Positions 52,684 through 64,000 of a DNA stretch of 64,000 nucleotides are shown in pieces (the first letter of the stretch is position 1; each line of letters starts with the position of its first letter). A program made the position numbers and the translations under genes. The stretch comes from Hufsiella ginkgonis. GTDB taxonomy: Bacteria; Bacteroidota; Bacteroidia; Sphingobacteriales; Sphingobacteriaceae. The notes beneath the pieces are model-generated. The model saw nothing but the letters and a program-made list of their open reading frames with translations, was not told where the DNA came from and did no database searches. Location of the stretch: the NCBI RefSeq assembly GCF_009834915.1, contig NZ_WVHS01000002.1, positions 868,001 to 932,000 on the forward strand, written 5' to 3'.

Positions 52684-53100
52684 CTATTTCCTGGCCAGCG
52701 CTTGCTTTCCGAAGCGGATCAACTCCTTTGCCTTCATAAACCCGGCAGTTCCAAGCACCGGCTTACCTTCCGGATCGAAGATGATCAACGTAGGGTAAGC
52801 TTCCACCTGCCAGCGCTCAGCCAGTTTCGGCCCCTCTCCTTTTTCCATGTCGATGGAAACGTTCACGAAATTCGCGTTAAAGAATGCTGCGGCTTCAGGA
52901 TCAGCGAAAGTGGTCGACTTTAATAGCTTGCAGGGACCGCACCAGGTGGCGTAAGCGTCTACGAAAATGTACTTATGCTCCGCTTTGGCTTTTGCAAGAG
53001 CCGTCGGCCAGGAATTTTCTATGAATTTAATAGAAGGCTTCTCTGCCGGCCGTAAAGCGGTGATAACAAAAAACAGAACGATAGCGAATAAGCTCTTCAT
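52684..53100 (-). CDS. Periplasmic thioredoxin-fold protein
   Basis: This 138-residue protein has a short signal peptide (about 1-19) and a thioredoxin fold with active site WCGPC (Cys54, Cys57), then the cis-Pro segment VEAYPTLIIF. It is close to the thioredoxin_7/DsbD-gamma-like group, which reduces disulfides in the periplasm. Its start lies 1 bp after the peroxiredoxin stop, so it is translated from the same mRNA and is a natural electron donor for that peroxiredoxin. Transcription probably begins at the shared ECF-type promoter near 53804-53834. Confidence 0.9.
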   Translation of the reverse strand: MKSLFAIVLFFVITALRPAEKPSIKFIENSWPTALAKAKAEHKYIFVDAYATWCGPCKLLKSTTFADPEAAAFFNANFVNVSIDMEKGEGPKLAERWQVEAYPTLIIFDPEGKPVLGTAGFMKAKELIRFGKQALARK

Positions 53101-53101
53101 A

Positions 53102-53785
53102 TTATAGTTCGTCGTGGAGGGATGTGGCGGCAGCTTTCAGGAGCGAGGCGCTCAATCGCTGGGTGATATCCGGGTTAATGTATTCGAAACGGATATTGCC
53201 TTTTTTGTTGAGGATGAACACCGAAGGTACAGGCAGCAACTTGTCTGTATTCTTTCCCCCTGATGCGGCAGGTAAAAAGCTATCGTAATTCTTCGGCCCT
53301 TTAAAAGCGATCCCGAACTTTTTGGCGGCGCTAAGATCCGCATCCGACAAAAGCGTGTACGAAAGCTTGTTCCTGGTCATGGTCTGCGAAAGATTCTCCG
53401 GGCTATCTGTACTAATGGCGATGACCTGGAAACCCATTTGTTTGAGGTCGGCTTCGATGGCTTGTAAGCCTGCTAATTGTTTATTGCAGAAGGGGCACCA
53501 GCCGCCGCGGTAAAATACGAGGATGGTGGGTTTGGCGGCAACGGCCAGGTTAAGGTCGAAGGGTTCGCCTGAGGATTTGGGTAATACCAGTTTTGGAATT
53601 GATTCCCCGATTAACAGCGGGCTGATATCTTGCGGTTTCAGGGGAACGCCCGCGGTCATTTTGATAGTATCGGCAGGAAGTATTCCGGCCTTTAGTGAAG
53701 TTGTACTTGAAAATGCGAAAATAAATACGATAAAAATGATTTCGGATAATTTCACTACCAACTGATTGATCAACTTTATAGTCAT
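53102..53785 (-). CDS. Membrane-anchored or periplasmic peroxiredoxin-like protein (AhpC/TSA family)
   Basis: This 227-residue protein has an N-terminal hydrophobic segment (about 8-28) and a thioredoxin-like AhpC/TSA domain with FYRGGWCPFC (Cys97 and Cys100) and the typical LAGLQAIEADLKQMGFQVIA strand-helix. It should reduce peroxides or oxidised thiols outside the cytoplasm. The CxxC is more like the peroxiredoxin-like/AlkD-type subgroup than classical AhpC. Its promoter carries the same TTGTAAGG-N15-CGACTAA element as the sigma/MsrB locus 4 kb away, which suggests membership in that stress regulon. Confidence 0.85.
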   Translation of the reverse strand: MTIKLINQLVVKLSEIIFIVFIFAFSSTTSLKAGILPADTIKMTAGVPLKPQDISPLLIGESIPKLVLPKSSGEPFDLNLAVAAKPTILVFYRGGWCPFCNKQLAGLQAIEADLKQMGFQVIAISTDSPENLSQTMTRNKLSYTLLSDADLSAAKKFGIAFKGPKNYDSFLPAASGGKNTDKLLPVPSVFILNKKGNIRFEYINPDITQRLSASLLKAAATSLHDEL

Positions 53786-53803: not shown

Positions 53804-53834
53804 TTAGTCGGGTGCAATAATTAAACCTTACAAG
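53804..53834 (-). promoter_or_regulatory. ECF-type promoter of the peroxiredoxin/thioredoxin operon
   Basis: On the minus strand CTTGTAAGG (53834-53826), 15 nt, then CGACTAA (53810-53804). The -10-like box ends 18 bp before the peroxiredoxin ATG. Both boxes and the spacing equal those of the two divergent promoters at 57509-57580, apart from one base. Confidence 0.75.
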
Positions 53835-53869: not shown

Positions 53870-54946
53870 TTATTCGGCCAACAGCTCTTTTAGTTTTTTT
53901 TGCAATACTTTCTTATCCGGCAGGTATAACTGGTATTTCGAGACGAAGATCTTGTTCGAAATTCCCCGTGTGGCGTACTCTACCGTTACATCGTCCTTGT
54001 ATTTGGATAAAATGATCCCTATCGGCTGATTATCGCCTTCCACGTTTTGCTCCACCTCGAAATAATTCAGATAGAGATTCATCTGGCCGATATCCTGGTG
54101 TTTTACCGACTTTACTTTCAAATCGATCAGCACGAAACATTTCAGTATGCGGTGGTAAAAAACCAGATCGACATAAAAATGAGTATTATCGAGCGTAACC
54201 CGGTATTGCCTGCCGATAAAAGCGAAACCTTTGCCGAGTTCCATAATGAACGATTGCAAATTGTCGGCAATCCGTTGCTCCAGATGCTTTTCGTCGTATT
54301 GTTGCGCTTCGGGGATTTGCAGAAACTCAAGGACATAAGGGTCGCGAATAAGGTCAGTTTCCGTTTGTACAATACTTCCTTTACCCGCCAGTTCTCTGAC
54401 CCCCTTAGCGTCTTTGCTCATGGCAATGCGCTCAAACAAAGCGCTGTCCATTTGCCGCCGTAGTTCTCTTACAGACCAATTTTCTTGAATGGATGCTTGT
54501 TGGTAGAAACTCATTTCCTGCTCGTTATCACATTTCAAGAGATCATAGTAATGAGACCAGCTGAGGTGGTGTGACACTGTCAGACCAGTCGGGGTCTCGT
54601 ACGTTGCCTGTTGGTGTAACGGCGTCACACCAACCGCAGAATTACCAGACGCCTGCGGAAAAACAACAAATCGTTTATAAAATAATCGCATGTATGTAAG
54701 TTGGCTTCTACTGAATCCTTTGCCCAATTCCCTTGTGAGCTCTTTTGACAGATCAATGAGCATTTGACGAGTGGAAACTTCGTCATACTTTTCGCTTGTT
54801 TCCTTTTCAACAATCAATTGACCCACTGTCCAATAAGTTTGAAGTAGCGCTATATTAATATTGCGGGCGATATTCCTCCTGGATTGCTCCACGATCAGGC
54901 TAATTTGTCTGATCAGTTCGCTATAATTATTCTCAACAGATTTCAT
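53870..54946 (-). CDS. YhcG-type PD-(D/E)xK nuclease domain protein (DUF1016)
   Basis: This 358-residue protein has an N-terminal DUF1016 winged-helix region (about 10-185; ARNINIALLQTYWTVGQLIV, LTYMRLFYKRF) and a C-terminal PD-(D/E)xK nuclease region (about 200-350) with DLVFYHRILKC and IDLKVK (Asp260, Asp275, Lys277), followed by GQMNLYLNYF. It is full length with intact nuclease residues. Family members occur in defence islands and near mobile DNA; the exact function is unsettled. Just upstream on the same strand lies a broken HEPN gene, suggesting an accessory insertion between housekeeping redox genes. Confidence 0.9.
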   Translation of the reverse strand: MKSVENNYSELIRQISLIVEQSRRNIARNINIALLQTYWTVGQLIVEKETSEKYDEVSTRQMLIDLSKELTRELGKGFSRSQLTYMRLFYKRFVVFPQASGNSAVGVTPLHQQATYETPTGLTVSHHLSWSHYYDLLKCDNEQEMSFYQQASIQENWSVRELRRQMDSALFERIAMSKDAKGVRELAGKGSIVQTETDLIRDPYVLEFLQIPEAQQYDEKHLEQRIADNLQSFIMELGKGFAFIGRQYRVTLDNTHFYVDLVFYHRILKCFVLIDLKVKSVKHQDIGQMNLYLNYFEVEQNVEGDNQPIGIILSKYKDDVTVEYATRGISNKIFVSKYQLYLPDKKVLQKKLKELLAE

Positions 54947-55237: not shown

Positions 55238-56023
55238 CTACAACCCCGAATAATAATCATACCCCCTCTCCGCCCAATAATCCCTGGGCCGCTCGTTACT
55301 GAACGTCATTGTCCCGATTCGCTTCAGGTTTTTGATCCCGTATTTCACCGGGATGATGAGCCGCAGTGGCGCGCCATGTCCGTCGGTTAGCGGCATATCG
55401 TTCATTTCATAGGCCAGGATGGTTTGCGGGTGCAGCGCACTATCCATATCGATACCCACGTAATACTTCTCATCCGGGGTTTCCAACCCAAGATAAGCCA
55501 TTGCCGCTTCGTCGTTCAAGCGATAATGATCCATAAAATCGATCAATTTCACACCTGCCCAGTATTGGACCTGGTCCCAGCCTTCCACGCACTTAAAGTC
55601 AAAGACGATTTCCGTTCTCGGTAAAGCCTTTATGTCGTCCAGGCCGATGAGCAGCACCTGCCCGGATCGCTTCATTACAGACAGGTTCCATAACGAGACG
55701 TCGATCTTTTCTTTCATACCCACATGGCTATTCTCTCTCACCTTCTTTGCAGCCCCGGATTTGGGATACGTTTTTACCAAATGGTTCCTGCTGAAGAAAT
55801 TCCGGAAAGCCAGTTCCGATTGGTTTAACGCACGGCGAAAAGGCGCCTGCGCCTTGCCCGTTATCCCGGGTGTTTCTTTTGGCGACTTCTTCAGCCAGCT
55901 CCATCCGCCATAAGCAGCGACACTTAACCCGGCAAAGGCTGTAAACGAAATGAAGTTCCTGCGTTTGATCTGCTGCTCTACAGTGAGCGGCTGTTTAGGG
56001 TTTTTCTTCGGCAGGTTGTTCAT
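55238..56023 (-). CDS. Tat-exported molybdopterin oxidoreductase (sulfite-oxidase fold, MsrP-like)
   Basis: This 261-residue protein has a twin-arginine signal (KRRNFISFTAFAGLS, Arg21-Arg22) and an oxidoreductase molybdopterin-binding domain (about 105-245). Cys145 in FKCVEGW is the expected molybdenum ligand. Relatives include the periplasmic methionine-sulfoxide reductase MsrP and other small SUOX-fold enzymes. Its start overlaps the cytochrome b gene by 29 bp, so the pair is co-translated, with the cytochrome supplying electrons. The substrate is inferred from neighbours (MsrB, oxidative-stress promoter). Confidence 0.85.
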   Translation of the reverse strand: MNNLPKKNPKQPLTVEQQIKRRNFISFTAFAGLSVAAYGGWSWLKKSPKETPGITGKAQAPFRRALNQSELAFRNFFSRNHLVKTYPKSGAAKKVRENSHVGMKEKIDVSLWNLSVMKRSGQVLLIGLDDIKALPRTEIVFDFKCVEGWDQVQYWAGVKLIDFMDHYRLNDEAAMAYLGLETPDEKYYVGIDMDSALHPQTILAYEMNDMPLTDGHGAPLRLIIPVKYGIKNLKRIGTMTFSNERPRDYWAERGYDYYSGL

Positions 56024-56708
56024 CGTTTGAAGGAATAGTTAAAGATTTGATATTAGGAGATTCGATCACTTCGAAGCCCGAGATCACCGAGCGGAAGTTG
56101 TTCCATCCCGCAAGGAACACCTGGACGATATGGACCAGGAAAAACAAGACGTAGCCAATGGTTAAGGCGAAATGAAAGATCCTGGCGAGGTGGTAACCCC
56201 CGCAAAGCCAGGTGAGCCAGTAAAATTGCACGGGTTTATAAATGGCAAGGCCGGTTACCAGCGAGCCAAACCCCATCACGATGATCGATGTGTATGCGAT
56301 CCGTTGAGCGGCATTGTATTTGTCCTGCGGGGGAAGGCCTTTCCGGATATGGAAGTCGTGCAATACTACCAGCCAGGCTTCTCTAAAAGAATTGCGTTTC
56401 GGGAGCAGGTGCCGCCATTCACCGGAAACCCAGGTGTAAAGCACGTACAGGAGCCCATTTAAAGAGAAACCCCACATGAACATAAAATGCCAGGCCATCC
56501 CTTCGGCTAGCCGGAACGGGATATGGAGTGCTTTATAAAATCCCTGCGGGAAGAACAGGTAAAAGGTATGCCCGAAAAGCGTGATCGTATAATGACTGTT
56601 TGCCCAGTAAATCAGCAGTCCGCTCCAGGTCATGATGGTAAGCACCGGGAAGTTCACCCAATGGAACCAGCGGATGGCTAACGGGTGCTTCTCTTTCATC
56701 GTTTTCAT
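55995..56708 (-). CDS. Membrane cytochrome b (b561/Ni-hydrogenase type), partner of the molybdoenzyme
   Basis: This 237-residue protein has four to five membrane helices and conserved His in IRWFHWVNFPVLTIMTWSGL, AWHFMFMWGFSLNGLLYVLY and GGYHLARIFHFALTIGYVLF, expected to hold two b hemes. This is the cytochrome_b561-like domain found in quinol-linked membrane anchors. It would pass electrons from quinol to the periplasmic molybdopterin enzyme encoded by the overlapping next gene. It starts 4 bp after the DUF1223 gene stop. Confidence 0.88.
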   Translation of the reverse strand: MKTMKEKHPLAIRWFHWVNFPVLTIMTWSGLLIYWANSHYTITLFGHTFYLFFPQGFYKALHIPFRLAEGMAWHFMFMWGFSLNGLLYVLYTWVSGEWRHLLPKRNSFREAWLVVLHDFHIRKGLPPQDKYNAAQRIAYTSIIVMGFGSLVTGLAIYKPVQFYWLTWLCGGYHLARIFHFALTIGYVLFFLVHIVQVFLAGWNNFRSVISGFEVIESPNIKSLTIPSNDEQPAEEKP

Positions 56709-56712
56709 AGGC

Positions 56713-57480
56713 TTAATTTAGGCGGGGCGCTGAGTTTACGGTTGAGGCGGCAAGGATCTCCCCGGTTTGCGTGTTTTGAACAAAACCGATGATCTCCCAA
56801 TTGCGCGGATCGAAATCCTTTGGCAGCACAAGCGATACCTGGCCGATTCCTGGGGCAACCTGCTGAAGCGACCGAACGATGTTGGTATGAGGCAAGGTCA
56901 GGCCGCTGTTCTCGCCACGGGTAACTTTCACTGTCGCCGATTTTTGAACACTTGCAAGGTATAATTCCTGGCCATCAACTTTGGGAAAGGTAAGGTTAAT
57001 GACGGCAACGCCGGGTGAAAGGCTTTTTAATTGAAGATTAAGCGGGGTAGACGCCGGCGTCCCCGGCGACATAATCGCTTTTCGTAATTTACTTTCATCA
57101 GATCCGACAAATTCCGTTTTGCCATTCACCACCATTTGCGGGGTATAAACGCCGTTTTGATGAAACCATCGGGAATACTGCCGCTGACGCTCCGACCATT
57201 GCGCGCTGCTGAACGGATCTTTCCAGCCCAGGCGGTCCCAATAATCTACATGATAAGCCAGGATATACACCGGTTTCCCGGCGTATTCTTTCCCTATCCG
57301 GCTCACTAATTCATCGGCCGGCGGACAACTCGAACAACCTTCGGAAGTAAACAGCTCGATGAATGCGAAGCCTGGAAGCGGCTCACCGGCGGATGCCTCA
57401 CCACCTGTAAAGGAGAAACCGGCAATTGCCAGGATCGCTACGCTTACGACCAGCACGGTGATTTTTACGTATATACTCAT
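56713..57480 (-). CDS. Secreted DUF1223 protein with thioredoxin-like CxxC
   Basis: This 255-residue protein has a signal peptide or anchor (about 5-30) and a DUF1223 domain: FIELFTSEGCSSCPPADEL (CSSC near residues 49-52), ILAYHVDYWDRLGWKDPFSS and the YTPQMVVNGKTEFVGSD segment. DUF1223 has a thioredoxin-like fold and is presumed redox-active in the periplasm. It is the first gene of the operon DUF1223-cytochrome b-molybdoenzyme and starts 28 bp after the -10 box of the shared ECF-type promoter. Confidence 0.9.
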   Translation of the reverse strand: MSIYVKITVLVVSVAILAIAGFSFTGGEASAGEPLPGFAFIELFTSEGCSSCPPADELVSRIGKEYAGKPVYILAYHVDYWDRLGWKDPFSSAQWSERQRQYSRWFHQNGVYTPQMVVNGKTEFVGSDESKLRKAIMSPGTPASTPLNLQLKSLSPGVAVINLTFPKVDGQELYLASVQKSATVKVTRGENSGLTLPHTNIVRSLQQVAPGIGQVSLVLPKDFDPRNWEIIGFVQNTQTGEILAASTVNSAPRLN

Positions 57481-57508
57481 AATAGTATTAATTTACTGGT
57501 TTTGGGGT

Positions 57509-57539
57509 TTAGTCGGCATATTAACGGATACCTTACAAA
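57509..57539 (-). promoter_or_regulatory. ECF-type promoter of the DUF1223/cytochrome b/molybdoenzyme operon
   Basis: On the minus strand TTTGTAAGG (57539-57531), 15 nt, then CGACTAA (57515-57509). It is the mirror of the promoter at 57550-57580 with identical boxes and spacing; the two -35 boxes form a 9-bp inverted repeat 10 bp apart. Confidence 0.8.
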
Positions 57540-57549
57540 CAATAAGTAT

Positions 57550-57580
57550 TTTGTAAGGAACCCGCTTTCGCCGCGACTAA
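57550..57580 (+). promoter_or_regulatory. ECF-type promoter of the sigma/anti-sigma/msrB operon
   Basis: TTTGTAAGG (57550-57558), 15 nt, CGACTAA (57574-57580), 26 bp ahead of the sigma ATG at 57607. The same element faces the opposite operon and the peroxiredoxin operon, so the encoded sigma factor probably recognises it and controls its own synthesis. Confidence 0.8.
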
Positions 57581-57606
57581 GCGATAACATAGCTGACGCT
57601 TCATCA

Positions 57607-58173
57607 ATGACCAACGATCATTTACAACCTGCCGACTGGGTGACCAACCATGCCGATTACCTGTACCAATATGCAGTTAAGCGGGTGAACGACGCAGATA
57701 TCGCGCGCGACCTTGTGCAGGATACCTTCCTGGCCGCACTCGAAAAAGCCGCCGCTTTTGAAGGACGGAGCAGCGAACGCACCTGGCTTACCGCTATTAT
57801 CAAATTCAAGATTTACGACGTATACCGGGAGAAGTCGGGAAGTTTGAAAGAGCTGAGAACGGAAGAACATGAGGCGCTGCAGCAGCAGGACTTTTTCAAT
57901 GATTTCGGGCATTGGATACCGGCGCATTACCCGGAGAACTTTATTTCAACGGAACCCGATCCGTTGCAGGCAAAAGAGTTCGGTGAGGTCCTTAAGCGGT
58001 GCATGGAAAAACTGCCCGCCCTTTGGTTGTCCGTCTTTACGATGAAGCACCTGGATGAGGAAACCACCCCCGTGATCTGCGAGTCGCTGCGCATCAGTTC
58101 CTCCAATTACTGGGTGATCGTTCACCGGGCAAAATTAAGCCTGCGGGCTTGTCTTCAAAAGAACTGGATTTAA
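57607..58173 (+). CDS. ECF sigma-70 factor of an oxidative-stress regulon
   Basis: This is a 188-residue sigma factor from the ATG at 57607; an earlier TTG at 57502 lies upstream of the promoter and is excluded. Region 2 spans about 12-85 (VNDADIARDLVQDTFLAALE, ERTWLTAIIKFKIYD) and region 4 about 130-185 (LWLSVFTMKHLDEETTPVIC, SSNYWVIVHRAKLSLRACL). It is followed by a small zinc-type anti-sigma gene whose ATG lies 11 bp after its stop. Its own promoter and two others share one bipartite element, the expected pattern for an autoregulated ECF factor. Confidence 0.92.
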   Translation: MTNDHLQPADWVTNHADYLYQYAVKRVNDADIARDLVQDTFLAALEKAAAFEGRSSERTWLTAIIKFKIYDVYREKSGSLKELRTEEHEALQQQDFFNDFGHWIPAHYPENFISTEPDPLQAKEFGEVLKRCMEKLPALWLSVFTMKHLDEETTPVICESLRISSSNYWVIVHRAKLSLRACLQKNWI

Positions 58174-58184
58174 ACGAACAAACG

Positions 58185-58454
58185 ATGAACGCATTAAAGA
58201 AAATACAACACAACTGCAAACAAGCTACGTTCCTGATCGAGAAGCAAAGCCTTACCAGGCTCAGTCTGCGCGAGTCGATCGAACTGCGTATCCACCTGGC
58301 AGGCTGTTCCCTCTGCCGGTTATACCAGCAGCAGAGCGGTATGATCGGGCGTGCGGTACAACAATTGTTGAAATCGAGCCGGGAAAAGCCGCTGGATGAA
58401 ACTTTCAAACAGGAGCTGCAAAACCGGATCGACGAGCGGTTAAATAAAAACTAA
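58185..58454 (+). CDS. Small soluble zinc-type anti-sigma factor (ZAS/zf-HC2)
   Basis: This 89-residue protein from the ATG at 58185 (the frame is open back to 58149 inside the sigma gene) has no membrane helix. Cys11 and the block HLAGCSLC (His37, Cys41, Cys44) form the Cys...His-x3-Cys-x2-Cys zinc-ligand set of ZAS anti-sigma factors, such as RsrA and ChrR, where oxidation releases the sigma factor. A charged C-terminal helix follows. It likely binds the preceding sigma factor and senses thiol oxidation in the cytoplasm; redox sensing is inference from the motif and target genes. Confidence 0.82.
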   Translation: MNALKKIQHNCKQATFLIEKQSLTRLSLRESIELRIHLAGCSLCRLYQQQSGMIGRAVQQLLKSSREKPLDETFKQELQNRIDERLNKN

Positions 58455-58462
58455 CTGGTTAT

Positions 58463-58474
58463 AAGGAGGAGAAG
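58463..58474 (+). promoter_or_regulatory. Strong Shine-Dalgarno ahead of msrB
   Basis: TAAGGAGGAGAAG stands immediately before the ATG at 58475, with the core AAGGAGG 5 nt from the start. Most genes here lack such a motif, as is usual in Bacteroidota. It favours the ATG at 58475 over the inner one at 58508. Confidence 0.6.
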
Positions 58475-59011
58475 ATGGAGATCACTAAAGAACTAAAATC
58501 ACTGACTATGAAATTATTAAAATTGTTTATAGCGCCCCTGCTGCTGGTCTCGTTACAGGCTTGCAGCCAGGGTAACCCGAAGAAAATGAAAGCGGCAACT
58601 TCCGAAGATGCCGGTACCTTCCCCGGAGCCAAACCGAACAGCTACTGGAAACAAACCCTTACGCCGGAGGCCTACCACATTATGGTAGAAAAGGGTACGG
58701 AACCGTCTTTTAAAAATCCCTACTGGAACAATCACCAAAAAGGTACGTACGTGAGCGCGGCAACCGGCAAACCGCTGTTCAGTTCGGATACAAAATTTGA
58801 ATCAGGCACTGGCTGGCCGAGCTTCTTTAAGCCGATCAATGAAAAGGATATCATGATCATCAGGGACAGTTCGCTCGGAATGGTCCGCGAAGAAGTGGTT
58901 GAGCGGAGTACCGGGCTGCACCTGGGCCATGTGTTCGACGATGGCCCCGCTCCCACCGGCAAGCGTTACTGTATGAATTCTTACGCATTGAAGTTTATCC
59001 CAGCCAAATAA
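58475..59011 (+). CDS. msrB: Peptide-methionine (R)-S-oxide reductase MsrB, lipoprotein form
   Basis: This 178-residue protein carries a lipoprotein signal (VSLQAC, Cys30 from the 58475 start), so it acts in the periplasm or on the membrane rather than the cytosol. The MsrB domain (about 48-178) shows FESGTGWPSFFKPI, LGHVFDDGPAPTGKRYCMNS with the catalytic Cys in RYCMN, and LKFIPA at the end. The two CxxC zinc knots of many MsrBs are absent. It reduces Met-R-sulfoxide in proteins. It is third in the sigma/anti-sigma operon, 20 bp after the anti-sigma gene, and pairs functionally with the divergent MsrP-like molybdoenzyme. Confidence 0.94.
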   Translation: MEITKELKSLTMKLLKLFIAPLLLVSLQACSQGNPKKMKAATSEDAGTFPGAKPNSYWKQTLTPEAYHIMVEKGTEPSFKNPYWNNHQKGTYVSAATGKPLFSSDTKFESGTGWPSFFKPINEKDIMIIRDSSLGMVREEVVERSTGLHLGHVFDDGPAPTGKRYCMNSYALKFIPAK

Positions 59012-59089: not shown

Positions 59090-60622
59090 TCATTCGTTCG
59101 CCAGTTGCCTGAGTGCTTTGAGGCCACCCTCATTTTTAGGATTTAAATTGACAGATTTTTGGTACATAAGTTTTGCTGCCTCTCTGTTACCCGTTTTCAA
59201 AAGCACCTCCCCGTAACTGTCATACACATTGAAGCTTTCAGGAAATAAAAGCGCATTTACTTTCAGCGCTTCCATTCCCAGTTGGGTGTAACCATCTTCA
59301 AAAAGCCTTAGACCTAAAAAATTAAGTTCCCCTTCGCTTAATACATATCGCTGATCATTTCTTAAGCCTGCCAGGCTGGAACTAGCCTGATCGATGCCCT
59401 GTTCCAGCAGCAGCCTCGCGTAGATCAGCGCCAATGACCTTTTGTAAACAAAAGATTTCCCGCTTAACAGCAAATACGTCTCCGGGGCAATGGTGGCATT
59501 CCCGGCATTATCCGTAGTCACTATCACCTGCCCTGTCTTCAGGTTATGCAGAAAAAAAGAATTCATGCCGGGTATCCCCCCACTATGCCATACCACTTTA
59601 CCCCCGTCATCATGCTTATAAATAAACCAGCCCAGGCCATAGCTCGCTTCATCAATTCCCGCCCGGAAATACGGAATGCTGCCATTGTTGAGTTTGACCG
59701 GGCTGAACATTTGGTTCAGGCTGCCAGGCGATACCAGCTTGCCTGAAAAAAGCGCCCGGTCAAACAGCAACATATCGCCGCCGGTGGCATATATATTTCC
59801 CTGCCCATAGAGCATGGACCAGTTGAACGTCCATTTGCGCAAAACAGGAACTTCATTAACCGGCTGCAAGGTACTGGAATAGGGAGCAGGTCTAATGAAA
59901 TTGACTGCCGTGCCGCTCCGCCCGGCGCTTCCGGGCGGCCCCCCCACACTGGAATGCAGCATACCAGCAGGCAGAAATATATGTTTTTTCAGGTAAGCCG
60001 GGAATTTTTCGCCACTCAACTTTTCCACCAGGAGTGCCAATAAACTAAACCCGGTATTGCAGTACTCATATTTTTCACCAGGGGAAAATTGCAAAGGTTT
60101 AGCATATGCTTTCAGTTCCGGCACCAGGTCTGCGTTCTTTACCTGGTAACCAGGTGCGCGCTCTAACAGCGGCGAGAAAAGGGCTTCGGTATTGGGCAGT
60201 CCGCTGGTGTGGGACAACAGGTGCCTGATGGTTACCGATTCAAAGGGAAAATCAGGAAAATACCTGCTCAATTTATCGTCAAGATGCAGCTCTTTCTTTT
60301 CAATCAGCTGGAAAATCGCGACCGCAGTAAAAGGTTTTGACACAGAGGCCATATTAAACCGGGTATCAGCTGCGTTCGGTATCTGCGGAGTAAGACCGGC
60401 AAATCCGAAGGACTTTTCGTAGATCAGATCCGTACCTTCAGCAATAAGCACATTGCCATTAATTTTTCTATCGGCATCTAGGGCATTATAAAAACTGTCC
60501 AGCTGCACAGGCAGATGCTGAGCAACGGCAGCTGAACAGTTAACGATTAACTGTAATAACACGAATAGCCTGTTCCAACTCAAAAAATAACTTTTCACCC
60601 TATTTCGCTTTATTGACCCCAA
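59090..60622 (-). CDS. Beta-lactamase-like serine hydrolase with C-terminal TPR
   Basis: This is a 510-residue secreted protein with a signal/anchor at about 12-35. The class-C beta-lactamase/PBP4-like fold has Ser93-x-x-Lys96 (SVSK) as nucleophile and general base, Tyr187-x-Asn189 (YCN), and a VWHSGG block near 345 in place of KTG. Residues about 425-510 hold TPR helices (GYTQLGMEALKVNALLFPES, FNVYDSYGEVLLKTGNREAA). Members hydrolyse D-amino-acid peptides or esters; lactam resistance is not implied. It is a paralog of the protein at 61390 and overlaps the upstream coiled-coil gene by 23 bp. Confidence 0.92.
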   Translation of the reverse strand: MGSIKRNRVKSYFLSWNRLFVLLQLIVNCSAAVAQHLPVQLDSFYNALDADRKINGNVLIAEGTDLIYEKSFGFAGLTPQIPNAADTRFNMASVSKPFTAVAIFQLIEKKELHLDDKLSRYFPDFPFESVTIRHLLSHTSGLPNTEALFSPLLERAPGYQVKNADLVPELKAYAKPLQFSPGEKYEYCNTGFSLLALLVEKLSGEKFPAYLKKHIFLPAGMLHSSVGGPPGSAGRSGTAVNFIRPAPYSSTLQPVNEVPVLRKWTFNWSMLYGQGNIYATGGDMLLFDRALFSGKLVSPGSLNQMFSPVKLNNGSIPYFRAGIDEASYGLGWFIYKHDDGGKVVWHSGGIPGMNSFFLHNLKTGQVIVTTDNAGNATIAPETYLLLSGKSFVYKRSLALIYARLLLEQGIDQASSSLAGLRNDQRYVLSEGELNFLGLRLFEDGYTQLGMEALKVNALLFPESFNVYDSYGEVLLKTGNREAAKLMYQKSVNLNPKNEGGLKALRQLANE

Positions 60623-61349
60623 AGTTGTAACTCACCCCTGTTCTGACCAGGGATGGATATTTTTTAAGATACTTATCCAGTATTGCCCCGCTCTGCGAAT
60701 TGCCATTCACCCGCATACCTGAAGGTTCCAGTTGGAGACTCTTTAAGTCATGTTTAGCCCCAATAATCTTATCGGAAACCAGCTCAGTCATCAGCTCGTC
60801 CAAAAGTTTACGATCTGTTTCCGCCGCTTCATGGTCCTTTTCTGCCTTTAGGCGGTCACCATCCGCAATAACTTTTGCTGCATCCGCCTTGGCACGGTCT
60901 TTCCCGGCCAAATTTTTATCTTTTTCAGCCTTAATCTTCATTTGCTCCGCAGCAGATTTTGCTGCCAGCGTTTGTGATTTTACATTCAGCGTTCTTTCTT
61001 TTTCTACAAGGCTTTTCTTCTGATCACCCACGGACCTGGCCTTTTCAGTTTTCGCCCGCTGCTCATTCTTTTTTAGCTGGGTTTTAAGCTCACTAATCTC
61101 CGAAGCATAAGCATCCCATCCGGATTCGGGGACGGCTTTGCCATCGACGGAAAGGGCTGTCACCTTTTCTCCGGATAAATTCAGCTCAAAGTCCTTTCCA
61201 CCGAGCTTTTTACTGATCCGGGCGCTTACTTTCCCATGCGCAGACTCCCGCAACTCGATTTTCTCAGTTGAACTTTGCGCGCAAAGGTTAATGCTCATGG
61301 CCAGCATGCTCAGCATAAGCAAGCCGTTTAAAATTGTTGTAGTTTTCAT
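60600..61349 (-). CDS. Secreted coiled-coil protein resembling the C-terminal tail of M56 sensor peptidases
   Basis: This 249-residue protein has a signal peptide (about 1-24, SINLCAQ). After a small beta-rich region (FELNLSGEKVTALSVDGKAV) comes a Lys/Glu/Ala-rich coiled coil (about 85-195; KAEKDKNLAGKDRAKADAAK) and a C-terminal segment LMTELVSDKIIGAKHDLKSL then MRVNGNSQSGAILDKYLKKY. The last block and the A-x-x-D-R periodicity resemble the periplasmic end of Bacteroidota BlaR1-type M56 proteins, one of which lies just upstream. It lies between two serine hydrolases in the same operon. It is possibly a periplasmic partner or decoy for the sensor; the function is unknown. Confidence 0.6.
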   Translation of the reverse strand: MKTTTILNGLLMLSMLAMSINLCAQSSTEKIELRESAHGKVSARISKKLGGKDFELNLSGEKVTALSVDGKAVPESGWDAYASEISELKTQLKKNEQRAKTEKARSVGDQKKSLVEKERTLNVKSQTLAAKSAAEQMKIKAEKDKNLAGKDRAKADAAKVIADGDRLKAEKDHEAAETDRKLLDELMTELVSDKIIGAKHDLKSLQLEPSGMRVNGNSQSGAILDKYLKKYPSLVRTGVSYNFGVNKAK

Positions 61350-61389
61350 ATTGTTCTTTTTTTATGGTTTTAAAAATTAAATTCAATGG

Positions 61390-62907
61390 TTAATGGTTAC
61401 CGGAATTTAGTTCCGCCAGGGCTTTTTTCGCGCCTTCATAATTAGGGTTTAATGCAAGCGAACGCTCAAACATCAATATCGCCTCCTGCTTTTTGCCTGC
61501 CCGCTTAAGCAGGTCACCGTAACTGTCATAAGTATTAAAGCTGGCAGGGAACAGTAAGGTATTCACCTTCATGACCTCAAGGGCTTCAGCCGAAAACCCG
61601 TCTCCAGCCAGGGCGTAACCCAAACGGTTCATTTCCCGCTCGTCCAGGAAGTAAGCCGCCGTATCCGAGCGCATAGTCAGTAGCTGGGCAGCTGCCGCAT
61701 TAGCGCCATCCCGGTGTAAAACCGCGATGTAAGCCGCCGCCGCGGAGCGCTTTTTTTTAGCAACGGAAGCTCCGTTCAGCAAATAAAAGGCATCCATCGC
61801 GTCCGCATGCAGACCGCGGTGCGTCACATTATCCAGTACGATCAGCGTTTGACCTTTGTCGAGGTTCCTGATAAAAGCGGTAACAATCCCAGCTGCGCCG
61901 CCAGAATGCCAGACCACCTTCCCGAAGCGGGTTTGAAGAATCATCCAGCCAAGACCATAATAGCTGCCACCCCAGCCCATCTGCACTTTTTCACCGCTGT
62001 TCAACACCGCCGGAGTAAAAGCAAGCTTCAGGGTCTTCGCTTTGAGCAGCTTGCCAGCATATAGCGCCTGGTCATAATTCAATAAATCCTGGCAGTTGCT
62101 CACTACCGCCGTTGGTCCCAGAATCGCACCCAGCACGACTGCATCTATGTAATCAGATTTTACAGAATCTACCGGCCTGAAGACCGAAGGGGCATAAGGG
62201 ACATATTCATACCGGGTAGCCCTATGACTATCCTTAATAGGAATTAGCGGGCTGGTCACATAGCTATTGTTCATACCCGCAGGAGAAAAAATATGCCTGG
62301 ACAAATAATCCTGGAAAGCCTCACCGCTCAGCTTTTCCACCAGCAGCGCCAACAGACCGTAACCGGTATTGGAATAACTCCAGCGCTCACCGGGCTTTGC
62401 CCCCAGCGCCCTTTTGTCTGCTTTAATCGCCGGGATCAGATCCTTTAATGTATAGATCTGTTTGAAATCACGCTGGTATGACCCCTCAAAAATCTGGTAA
62501 TCAATCAGGCCCGAAGTATGACTCAATAGCTGGGAGATGGTAATGTCCGCGAAAGGGAATTCGGGAAAGTATCTAACAAAACGGTCATCCAGTTTCAGCT
62601 TCCTTTTTTCCATCAGCTGCAATACCGCAACCGAGGTAAAAGTCTTCGAGATCGAAGCCAGGTTGAAGGTTGTCGCTGCGTCGTTCAACCGCTCGCCCGC
62701 TACATCAGCAAAGCCGAACGATTTGCTGTAAATGGTTTTCCCCTGCTGCGCAATCAGCACGTTCCCGTTAAACTCATTGTGCCGGACCAAATTTACAAAC
62801 TGACTGTCCAACCGCTGGCTGGTCTCCTGAGCAAGCATCCGGGTAGGTAAGCAGGCGGATAAAAGCACCATCAATGCGGTAGCCTTTTTAAAATTCTCCT
62901 GATTCAT
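61390..62907 (-). CDS. Beta-lactamase-like serine hydrolase with C-terminal TPR (paralog)
   Basis: This 505-residue secreted protein has a signal peptide cut near residue 26 (MLAQ). Catalytic motifs are Ser85-x-x-Lys88 (SISK), Tyr178-x-Asn180 (YSN) and a VWHSGGAAG block near 347. The C-terminal region (about 420-505) carries TPR helices (GFSAEALEVMKVNTLLFPAS, EAILMFERSLALNPNYEGAK). It matches the protein at 59090 along its whole length, so the pair arose by duplication, with the coiled-coil gene now between them. It lies 70 bp downstream of the M56 gene and is the probable first target of that sensor's regulation. Confidence 0.92.
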   Translation of the reverse strand: MNQENFKKATALMVLLSACLPTRMLAQETSQRLDSQFVNLVRHNEFNGNVLIAQQGKTIYSKSFGFADVAGERLNDAATTFNLASISKTFTSVAVLQLMEKRKLKLDDRFVRYFPEFPFADITISQLLSHTSGLIDYQIFEGSYQRDFKQIYTLKDLIPAIKADKRALGAKPGERWSYSNTGYGLLALLVEKLSGEAFQDYLSRHIFSPAGMNNSYVTSPLIPIKDSHRATRYEYVPYAPSVFRPVDSVKSDYIDAVVLGAILGPTAVVSNCQDLLNYDQALYAGKLLKAKTLKLAFTPAVLNSGEKVQMGWGGSYYGLGWMILQTRFGKVVWHSGGAAGIVTAFIRNLDKGQTLIVLDNVTHRGLHADAMDAFYLLNGASVAKKKRSAAAAYIAVLHRDGANAAAAQLLTMRSDTAAYFLDEREMNRLGYALAGDGFSAEALEVMKVNTLLFPASFNTYDSYGDLLKRAGKKQEAILMFERSLALNPNYEGAKKALAELNSGNH

Positions 62908-62977
62908 ATTTAATTTTTAGGCAATAGAATTCCCTGCTGACTAATAAAGGAGCCAGTGACAGGTCTTATGACAAAAT

Positions 62978-64000
62978 TTATTGTTTATTTACCGGAACGA
63001 TGATATTTTTAATTACGGGAATTGGTCTGCTCTTATTGCGAATCGTTTCCAGGCGCTTCGCCTCGGCCTGCTCCCGCTCCTTTTCGGCCAACGCTTTATC
63101 GACCATGACCTGTCGCCTGTCCTGATCCGCCCGTTGCCGGTCAAGCGTAGCGTGATGCGCATTTTCTTCACTGGCCATCCTGTTGAGCTCGGCCGCACTA
63201 TTGAGCGAATCCGGAATCCTTGCAACCGGATCCTTATTAACTGCAGTATCGGCTAAACGCATCTGGGTTGCCGCTTCTTTTTTGGTAGTCTCAATCCTAA
63301 CTTTTTCCAATGTCTTTCCCGCGCGCTCCCGGGCACTTTCCTTTTTAAACAGGTGGGTAAGTTCTACAGGTATTGGTTTTGACTTGTTGATCGAAGGACT
63401 GATTTGCGCCACAGTGAGTGTGGCACTCAGTAGGCAGACCAGCAAAAACCCGCTTATTGCCACAAATACATAAGCTCCAGTTGGGACACTGCTCCGTTTC
63501 AGGCCCAGAATCCGGCTCGCCCTTTCTAGCAACTGGTTCTTCTGCCCCGAAAAGCCGACACTCAGTTCCGATGCGGCCAGGGAATACTCCTTGAAGCTCA
63601 CCAGCGCCTGCACAAATTCTTTACGATTCCCGGTTTGGGCCACCGCAAGATCATCGCAGCAATATTCGCGTTCCTGCTTTAGCAGCTCAGAAATCCAGAG
63701 CAGCCCCGGGTTAAAAAAGAAAACCGTTTCTGTAAAAGCCTGCACCAGATTCACCAGAAAATCGTGACGGCGAATATGCGCCAACTCATGCAGCAGTACC
63801 CCTTCCAGTTGCCCGGCAGGTAAACCGGTAAGCAGTCCTACGGGCATTAGAATGACGGGCGAAAAATGTCCAAGAACAACCGGGACCTTTACCAAGCTGG
63901 ATTCCAGCAGCCTGACCACCCGGTTAAGCCCCAGCCGGGAACCCAATTCCGCCATCTTTTCCTGCCAGTAATCAGTTACCTGCTGGTTTTCCGAGTAACG
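62978..64000 (-). CDS. BlaR1-like M56 family membrane metallopeptidase (5' end beyond window)
   Basis: The frame is open through the window edge, so the N-terminal membrane helices are missing. Visible parts: the M56 zinc motif HELAH (63776-63790), the downstream ligand region KQEREYCCDDLAVAQ, a membrane helix (YVFVAISGFLLVCLLSATL), then a periplasmic tail rich in Arg/Glu/Ala (RQRADQDRRQVMVDKALAEK) ending RPIPVIKNIIVPVNKQ. In BlaR1/MecR1 systems this protein senses a cell-wall signal and inactivates a BlaI-type repressor, usually encoded immediately upstream, here outside the window. The charged repeats resemble the coiled coil of the gene at 60600. Confidence 0.9.
   Translation of the reverse strand, partial: RYSENQQVTDYWQEKMAELGSRLGLNRVVRLLESSLVKVPVVLGHFSPVILMPVGLLTGLPAGQLEGVLLHELAHIRRHDFLVNLVQAFTETVFFFNPGLLWISELLKQEREYCCDDLAVAQTGNRKEFVQALVSFKEYSLAASELSVGFSGQKNQLLERASRILGLKRSSVPTGAYVFVAISGFLLVCLLSATLTVAQISPSINKSKPIPVELTHLFKKESARERAGKTLEKVRIETTKKEAATQMRLADTAVNKDPVARIPDSLNSAAELNRMASEENAHHATLDRQRADQDRRQVMVDKALAEKEREQAEAKRLETIRNKSRPIPVIKNIIVPVNKQ

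What the first reader, a model, noticed from the sequence alone, without database searches (positions are those of the whole stretch)
55238..59011. Candidate periplasmic methionine-sulfoxide/thiol repair regulon with a redox-type anti-sigma factor
The locus combines a soluble anti-sigma factor with the Cys11/His37-x3-Cys41-x2-Cys44 zinc set of RsrA/ChrR-type proteins, a lipoprotein MsrB, a Tat-exported MsrP-like molybdoenzyme with its cytochrome b, and a CxxC DUF1223 protein. Knowledge: RsrA-type factors release sigma on disulfide formation, and MsrP with a membrane heme partner repairs periplasmic methionine sulfoxide. Inference: a cytoplasmic redox sensor drives two different envelope methionine-repair systems plus thiol peroxidase. 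I know of no described system with exactly this set.
Basis: partly seen in the sequence, partly recalled or inferred. Interest (0 to 1): 0.8.

Follow-up and report, generated by a model that had tools for sequence, protein, structure and literature searches.

The report
Redox switch for envelope methionine repair
This bacterium carries a small genetic switch, probably triggered by bleach-like oxidants, that should turn on several enzymes repairing oxidised methionine outside the cytoplasm; in related species the same switch also controls a secreted methionine-packed peptide that may soak up the oxidant.

Summary
TGTAAGG-N15-CGACTAA occurs three times in the 5.2-Mb genome, all in this window, 18-28 nt before the sigma, DUF1223 and AhpC/TSA genes; the reversed-pattern control gives 0. 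One sigma/zinc anti-sigma pair should thus drive sigma-antisigma-MsrB, DUF1223-cytochrome b-MsrP and peroxidase-thioredoxin.

Over 250 genomes of the order the site tracks this anti-sigma (73 both, 15 anti-sigma only, 7 site only, 155 neither). Its C11/H37/C41/C44 set is invariant in 44 of 44. In relatives the site also precedes MsrA, DUF417/RclC-like genes, one Hvf operon and, unexpectedly, a secreted Lys/Met-rich peptide, found in 51 of 250 genomes, all 51 with both the anti-sigma and this MsrP.

It works like Neisseria sigmaE/MseR and Haemophilus RpoE2/HrsE (zinc anti-sigma, near-identical promoter, Msr and Hvf targets) with effectors like Azospira/Brucella MrpX-MsrP, but with another anti-sigma class and cytochrome partner than the latter. 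New variant of a known kind. Hypochlorite as signal is inferred; the window's genome has no detectable Met-rich peptide.

The parts
57552..57580 (+). promoter-like site TGTAAGG-N15-CGACTAA, 26 nt before the sigma gene
   Evidence: exact match; one of 3 in the whole genome, reversed control 0
57607..58173 (+). ECF sigma factor, 188 aa (nearest NCBIfam model TIGR02943, below its cut-off)
58185..58454 (+). soluble 89-aa anti-sigma factor with ZAS motif C11-X25-H37-X3-C41-X2-C44
   Evidence: 11 nt after the sigma stop codon
58475..59011 (+). MsrB with lipobox-like N-terminus (start 58475 or 58508); two Cys only, N-terminal and catalytic
57509..57537 (-). divergent promoter-like site, 28 nt before DUF1223
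56713..57480 (-). DUF1223 protein, secreted thioredoxin-fold type with CSSC
   Evidence: PDB 2axo, E 6.8e-27
55995..56708 (-). membrane cytochrome b (PF01292 type; H16, H74, H120, H173, H179, H193 invariant in 22 rows)
55238..56023 (-). MsrP/YedY-like molybdoenzyme, twin arginine R21 R22, Cys145
53804..53832 (-). third promoter-like site, 18 nt before the peroxidase gene
53102..53785 (-). secreted AhpC/TSA-type peroxidase with WCPFC
52684..53100 (-). secreted thioredoxin-like protein (WCGPC), next in the same operon

Best explanation
An autoregulated envelope-oxidation regulon. A cytoplasmic zinc anti-sigma factor (ZAS type) holds a dedicated ECF sigma factor; oxidation of its Cys/Zn centre frees sigma (inferred from RsrA/MseR-type proteins). 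Sigma reads TGTAAGG-N15-CGACTAA and switches on itself with the anti-sigma and lipoprotein MsrB, a DUF1223-cytochrome b-MsrP operon, and a secreted peroxidase-thioredoxin pair. The products reduce methionine sulfoxide in the envelope by two chemistries, thiol-based (MsrB, fed by a thioredoxin-like protein) and molybdenum-based (MsrP, fed from the quinone pool through the b cytochrome). In most relatives that carry the pair and this MsrP, a secreted Lys/Met-rich peptide is made too, as an oxidant sink that MsrP regenerates. The likeliest signal is hypochlorite or another reactive chlorine species. Shown by computation: genes, sites, conservation, co-occurrence. Inferred: binding, sensing, enzyme activity, signal.
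For: Three exact sites in 5.2 Mb, each 18-28 nt before one of the three operons, reversed control 0. Over 250 genomes 203 exact sites against 19 for the reversed control; 195 of 203 lie in the 88 genomes with a strong anti-sigma match (14 weaker anti-sigma genomes were counted as without, and none of them has the site). Of 146 sites examined of 203, 132 are followed directly by sigma (43), MsrA/B (26), DUF1223 (21, of which 20 continue into cytochrome b and MsrP), Met-rich peptide (19), peroxidase/thioredoxin-type (17), DUF417 (4), anti-sigma (1) or DoxX (1); median gap 27 nt. ZAS residues invariant in 44 of 44. Met-rich peptide in 51 of 250 genomes: 51 of the 60 with anti-sigma and MsrP, 0 of the 28 with anti-sigma but no MsrP, 0 of 162 without anti-sigma. 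One site leads an Hvf operon (HvfB 383.2 against cut-off 360, HvfC 147.9 against 142, DoxX), the operon type that Neisseria sigmaE and Haemophilus RpoE2 control. The neisserial consensus GTMAGBWTT-N12-13-CGTCTAAH differs mainly by one base in the -10 element.
Against: No expression, binding or enzyme data. N. meningitidis MseR has the same Cys set, yet H2O2, diamide and singlet oxygen did not activate sigmaE there, and a Haemophilus rpoE2 mutant was not more oxidant-sensitive in vitro. Caulobacter sigmaF, with a YedY-like target, answers chromate and cadmium, not ROS generators. The window's genome lacks a detectable Met-rich peptide (best E 0.12). MsrP also occurs in 17 of 162 genomes without the strong anti-sigma match. 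15 anti-sigma genomes have no exact site and 7 site-bearing genomes no anti-sigma. At up to 2 mismatches the pattern (11) is below its reversed control (43) in the own genome, so only exact sites count. The gene groups at sites were defined from those sites, and relatedness of genomes inflates the association.
Confidence: 0.75

Rival explanations
1. Metal-stress (copper or chromate) regulon: the anti-sigma loses function by metal binding to its thiols, and the Met-rich peptide and Hvf/bufferin-type peptides bind copper; methionine repair is a by-product of metal-catalysed oxidation.
For: Caulobacter sigmaF with a YedY-like gene and DUF692/DUF2063/DoxX-type targets responds to chromate and cadmium; an MNIO/Hvf operon lies behind one site, and bufferins of the MNIO family are described as copper chelators (abstract of PMC12452194). 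Met-rich segments can bind Cu(I) (recalled).
Against: No copper ATPase, efflux pump or copper oxidase was recognised among the recurrent gene groups behind the 146 sites; the recurrent groups are Msr enzymes, MsrP and thiol peroxidases. The Hvf operon is at 1 of 146 sites. The peptides are Lys-rich and nearly free of Cys and His.
Confidence: 0.2
2. General cytoplasmic disulfide-stress response of the RsrA kind, in which the envelope genes are only part of the output and the signal is thiol oxidation of any origin.
For: The ZAS motif is shared with RsrA, MseR and HrsE (C/H-X23-26-H-X3-C-X2-C), and thioredoxin/peroxidase genes are targets.
Against: The predicted regulon in this genome is three operons only; apart from the sigma/anti-sigma pair the products carry export, lipoprotein or membrane signals. 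No cytoplasmic thioredoxin or thioredoxin reductase was recognised among the recurrent groups.
Confidence: 0.25
3. The molybdoenzyme is a sulfite dehydrogenase or other SUOX-type oxidoreductase rather than a methionine sulfoxide reductase.
For: It falls below the MsrP cut-off (80.8 against 207), and the structural comparison gives YedY and chicken sulfite oxidase nearly equal E-values (2.4e-11 and 6.8e-11); its cytochrome partner is not MsrQ-like.
Against: By sequence the nearest solved structure is YedY (1xdq, E 2.6e-20; next 7.7e-11) and the nearest NCBIfam model is MsrP (80.8 bits; next SorA 46.5). In all 51 genomes with a Met-rich peptide this enzyme is present, and it shares the promoter with MsrA and MsrB.
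Confidence: 0.15
4. The promoter-like sites are coincidence and the genes are neighbours without common control.
For: Two of 80 named loci (L213, L223) carry an exact match inside the sigma coding sequence, which shows that the pattern can arise without being a promoter. Outside the family the phylum draw gave 4 matches in 288 genomes against 14 control matches.
Against: 3 exact sites against 0 control in the genome, 203 against 19 in 250 genomes, and 195 of 203 in anti-sigma genomes.
Confidence: 0.03

Closest known systems
Neisseria sigmaE/MseR regulon (PMC2893595: abstract and sections 11-12 read; PMC3240639: passages)
   Same: Autoregulated ECF sigma with a small ZAS anti-sigma encoded directly downstream; conserved Cys positions; MsrA/MsrB target; -35 GTMAGBWTT and -10 CGTCTAAH 12-13 nt apart, against GTAAGGWTT-N12-CGACTAA here; DoxX/DUF692/DUF2063 operon, also found behind one site in a relative.
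   Different: No MsrP, Met-rich peptide or DUF1223 in the targets seen in those passages; -10 has CGTC instead of CGAC. Whether the sigmas are orthologous could not be tested (no Neisseria sequence to hand).
Haemophilus influenzae RpoE2/HrsE (PMC7907618: abstract, passages, sections 24 and 29 read)
   Same: ECF sigma with a small cytoplasmic ZAS anti-sigma that co-purifies with it; periplasmic MsrAB; DoxX cluster; HOCl-induced.
   Different: MsrAB fusion instead of lipoprotein MsrB plus MsrP; no Met-rich peptide or DUF1223 mentioned in what was read.
Brucella BcrS/AbcS and Azospira SigF/NrsF with mrpX-yedY1-yedZ1 (PMC8315932: abstract and passages; Melnyk 2015 not held, recalled and as cited there)
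   Same: Redox-responsive ECF sigma that drives a Met-rich periplasmic peptide and an MsrP-type reductase against hypochlorite.
   Different: The anti-sigma is a six-helix membrane protein of the NrsF family (ECF16), promoter (T/C)GTAAC-N17-CGAA, partner MsrQ. Here the anti-sigma is soluble and ZAS-type, the partner is a PF01292 cytochrome, and DUF1223, MsrB and a peroxidase are added.
Caulobacter sigmaF/NrsF (PMC3511200: abstract and passages)
   Same: Small regulon with a YedY-like enzyme and DUF692/DUF2063/DoxX genes.
   Different: NrsF anti-sigma; chromate and cadmium signal; no Met-rich peptide among the targets seen.

Membership tests
ZAS (zinc-containing) redox anti-sigma factors | C/H-X23-26-H-X3-C-X2-C motif | tested here: met
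   C11-X25-H37-X3-C41-X2-C44, invariant in 44 of 44 rows; motif as given
ZAS (zinc-containing) redox anti-sigma factors | gene next to its ECF sigma, protein without membrane segment | tested here: met
   11 nt after the sigma stop codon; largest hydropathy mean 0.67, and at most 1.37 over 45 relatives
ZAS (zinc-containing) redox anti-sigma factors | anti-sigma-domain fold | tested here: inconclusive
   best VIA Z 6.5 with RsiW (rmsd 6.9), RslA 5.4, ChrR 3.4, mixed with unrelated chains; no Foldseek match at E <= 0.001; no PDB sequence match up to E 1
ZAS (zinc-containing) redox anti-sigma factors | zinc binding, sigma binding, release on oxidation | not testable with these tools
   needs biochemistry
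Neisseria sigmaE / Haemophilus RpoE2 type regulon | promoter GTMAGBWTT-N12-13-CGTCTAAH | tested here: inconclusive
   -35 element and spacing agree; the -10 element is CGACTAA in all sites used, by construction of the pattern; the CGTCTAA variant was absent from 80 named loci
Neisseria sigmaE / Haemophilus RpoE2 type regulon | Msr target | tested here: met
   MsrB is third in the sigma operon in the window; 26 of 146 sites lead MsrA (14) or MsrB (12)
Neisseria sigmaE / Haemophilus RpoE2 type regulon | orthologous sigma factor | not tested
   no Neisseria or Haemophilus sequence could be fetched
MsrPQ | MsrP catalytic subunit: SUOX-type domain with Cys ligand and twin-arginine signal | tested here: met
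   Oxidored_molyb 96.1 bits, C145 aligned with position 102 of 1xdq, R21 R22 invariant in 20 of 20
MsrPQ | NCBIfam MsrP equivalog cut-off | tested here: not met
   80.8 against 207 bits
MsrPQ | MsrQ partner (Ferric_reduct-type membrane protein; family name recalled) | tested here: not met
   the partner matches only PF01292 in Pfam
SigF/NrsF - MrpX systems (ECF16) | six-helix membrane anti-sigma of the NrsF family | tested here: not met
   soluble 89-aa zinc-type anti-sigma
SigF/NrsF - MrpX systems (ECF16) | Met-rich peptide co-regulated with MsrP | tested here: not met
   no peptide in the window's genome, although relatives have it: 51 of 250 genomes

The most novel reading that the evidence does not exclude
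Bacteroidota have evolved, under an unrelated anti-sigma class, the same answer to envelope chlorine stress as Azospira and Brucella: a secreted methionine sponge plus a molybdenum MetO reductase that recharges it, here wired to the membrane by a PF01292 cytochrome with a DUF1223 thiol protein as third partner. The peptide exists only where this MsrP exists (51 of 51 genomes), so it would be a dedicated regenerable substrate, and the same operon would be a second, non-MsrQ type of periplasmic MetO reductase.
Probability: 0.5. Interest if true: 0.75.

Novelty: new variant of a known kind. Interest (0 to 1): 0.62.

Why it matters
In Bacteroidota only about 6% of ECF sigma factors have a class I anti-sigma in the gene neighbourhood (passage of PMC7406223), so a redox-type pair with a defined promoter and a compact regulon is a good entry point to oxidant sensing in this phylum. 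If right, it gives DUF1223 a pathway (thiol transfer for envelope methionine repair), gives MsrP a second kind of electron donor, and shows the sponge-plus-reductase strategy arising under two unlike anti-sigma classes. Everything can be tested in non-pathogenic Pedobacter or Mucilaginibacter.

Tried and rejected
Met-rich peptide in the window's own genome: profile search gave best E 0.12 and 0.23 and nothing at E <= 1e-4, while the same search found 51 other genomes; scans of the window and of three own-genome stretches found none. Near-matches to the promoter (1-2 mismatches) in the own genome: 8 beyond the 3 exact ones, but the reversed control has 43 at that level, so they were not used; the one-mismatch site (L140) precedes a small lipoprotein ORF and another ECF sigma. 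Within the window, up to 3 mismatches gave 8 matches against 3.92 expected. Exact motif outside the family: 4 of 288 genomes against 14 control matches, not above background. Distant sigma homologues (50 of the 80 named loci, at most 46% identity) mostly lack the site: 4 of 50 have something similar upstream, against 26 of the 30 closer ones; two of their exact matches (L213, L223) lie inside the sigma gene. Fold comparison of the anti-sigma was too weak to use, and that of MsrP does not separate MsrP from sulfite oxidase. ChrR-type filing as such was not pursued: there is no C-terminal cupin in 89 aa. 57 of the 203 sites were not fetched. Papers: searches list no title or abstract start that describes this system in Bacteroidota; one search matched 5,480 papers and showed 20.


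Full report
What is there. Two divergent units meet between 57480 and 57607: sigma, anti-sigma and MsrB to the right, DUF1223, cytochrome b and the MsrP-like molybdoenzyme to the left. Gene ends are 11 nt apart (sigma/anti-sigma), 20 nt (anti-sigma/MsrB start 58475), 4 nt (DUF1223/cytochrome b) and overlapping by 29 nt (cytochrome b/MsrP). The anti-sigma has 89 residues, C11-X25-H37-X3-C41-X2-C44 and no hydrophobic segment. Its scores stay below curated cut-offs, so the family name rests on motif, position and conservation. MsrB has only two cysteines, one in the lipobox-like N-terminus and the catalytic one; 12 of the 14 MsrBs looked at share this.

The promoter. By eye the intergenic stretch holds two divergent copies of TGTAAGG-N15-CGACTAA. 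An exact search finds a third copy 18 nt before the AhpC/TSA peroxidase gene at 53785. In the whole 5.2-Mb genome there are these three and no other, with 0 for the pattern read backwards. The copies lie 26, 28 and 18 nt before the sigma, DUF1223 and peroxidase start codons. Weaker matches are useless: at up to 2 mismatches the genome has 11 and the control 43.

Conservation. In 250 genomes of the order, all of the same family, 80 genomes have 203 exact sites against 19 control matches. A profile of the anti-sigma finds 102 of 250 genomes; I counted the 88 with E <= 1.3e-25 as carriers and the 14 weaker ones (E 3.5e-17 to 1.2e-10) as non-carriers, none of which has the site. Then 73 have both, 15 the anti-sigma only, 7 the site only and 155 neither; 195 of 203 sites lie in carriers. 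Within these two genera alone (154 genomes) the split is 71, 14, 4 and 65. In the phylum draw of 296 genomes the exact site is in 9: 5 of 8 of the own family and 4 of 288 others, where the control has 14; so the exact form is a family feature. Among 80 named loci with related sigmas, 26 of the 30 with at least 50% identity have a matching or similar site upstream of sigma, Chitinophaga and Dyadobacter included, against 4 of the other 50.

What the site leads to. I fetched 100 regions of relatives, which with the window hold 146 of the 203 sites. The first gene is sigma at 43, MsrA or MsrB at 26 (14 and 12), DUF1223 at 21, a Lys/Met-rich peptide at 19, a peroxidase/thioredoxin-type protein at 17, DUF417 at 4, anti-sigma and DoxX at 1 each, and something else at 14. 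In 20 of the 21 DUF1223 cases cytochrome b and MsrP follow. The groups were defined from these sites, so the totals are descriptive; the independent points are that the same families recur and that they all fit one task. One of the other 14 (L106) is an operon of a 118-aa precursor without Pfam match, HvfB (383.2 bits, cut-off 360), HvfC (147.9, cut-off 142) and DoxX. The DUF417 proteins resemble RclC of the reactive-chlorine system (Pfam 110.9 against 27 for one; NCBIfam RclC 60.6 and 71.9 against 275, so not RclC proper).

The Met-rich peptide. Twenty-nine distinct sequences of 72-125 residues have a signal-peptide-like start and then about 17% Met and 29% Lys. A genome-wide profile search finds it in 51 of 250 genomes, the MsrP in 77 of 250 (one of these, G130, is a fragment, and about ten, including G075, are more divergent). 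All 51 peptide genomes carry both the strong anti-sigma and MsrP. Of the 88 anti-sigma genomes, 60 have MsrP and 51 of these the peptide; 28 lack MsrP and none of these has the peptide; of 162 without the anti-sigma none has it, although 17 have MsrP. The profile was built from peptides beside the site, and the genomes are related, so the association is not a clean probability; still, nothing forced the peptide to follow MsrP. The window's genome is one of the 9 with anti-sigma and MsrP but no detectable peptide.

Mechanism. Shown: genes, sites, conservation and co-occurrence. Inferred from relatives: the anti-sigma holds sigma and lets go when its Cys/Zn centre is oxidised; sigma switches on its own operon and the others; MsrB and MsrP reduce methionine sulfoxide in the envelope, MsrP with electrons through the b cytochrome; the peroxidase, thioredoxin-like and DUF1223 proteins deal with thiols. 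DUF1223 is a thioredoxin-fold family (passage of PMC3091736; 2axo), and its place here suggests thiol transfer next to MsrP. Reactive chlorine is the likeliest signal because methionine-repair and Met-rich sink systems in other bacteria answer HOCl and because RclC-like genes share the promoter; copper or chromate remain possible.

Comparison. Neisseria sigmaE/MseR has the same kind of anti-sigma, a nearly equal promoter, MsrAB and a DoxX/DUF692/DUF2063 operon, but oxidants did not induce it in meningococcus. Haemophilus RpoE2/HrsE controls MsrAB and the DoxX cluster, and these genes are induced by HOCl, although the mutant was not more sensitive in vitro. Brucella BcrS/AbcS drives a Met-rich peptide with MsrQP under HOCl through a membrane NrsF anti-sigma and TGTAAC/GCGAAA elements. 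The present system joins the regulator and promoter of the first pair with the effector idea of the last. It is not MsrPQ by the partner test and not ECF16 by the anti-sigma test. I could not test orthology of the sigma with the neisserial one.

Verdict. New variant of a known kind, interest 0.62.

Noticed in passing
own genome C12:704479-704507 (L140) and L120: A one-mismatch site precedes a small lipoprotein ORF and a different ECF sigma; in another genome (G171, no anti-sigma match) an exact site precedes a similar ECF sigma by 17 nt. Chance or a cascade, not resolved.
   Followed up: partly
L106:5727-8183: Exact site before a complete Hvf-type RiPP operon (precursor, HvfB, HvfC, DoxX) in a Pedobacter-genus genome.
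   Followed up: partly
L213:6107-6135 and L223:9594-9622: The exact 29-base pattern occurs inside the coding sequence of two distant sigma genes at nearly the same relative position, so it is not a promoter there.
   Followed up: partly
window 58475-59011: The MsrB lacks the usual zinc CxxC pairs and has only an N-terminal and the catalytic Cys; 12 of 14 MsrBs looked at share this.
   Followed up: partly
L050:5577-6074 and five relatives: A secreted protein group of about 170 residues without Pfam match (one member tested) follows the Met-rich peptide or the peroxidase in several genomes.
   Followed up: no
window 53870-54946: A YhcG-type PDDEXK nuclease gene (DUF1016 N-terminus) lies between the two target operons and is not behind a site.
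   Followed up: no
window 59090-63955: Two beta-lactamase-like genes with repeats and an M56/BlaR1-like gene with Lys/Glu-rich tails; names from reading the translations, not from a search.
   Followed up: no
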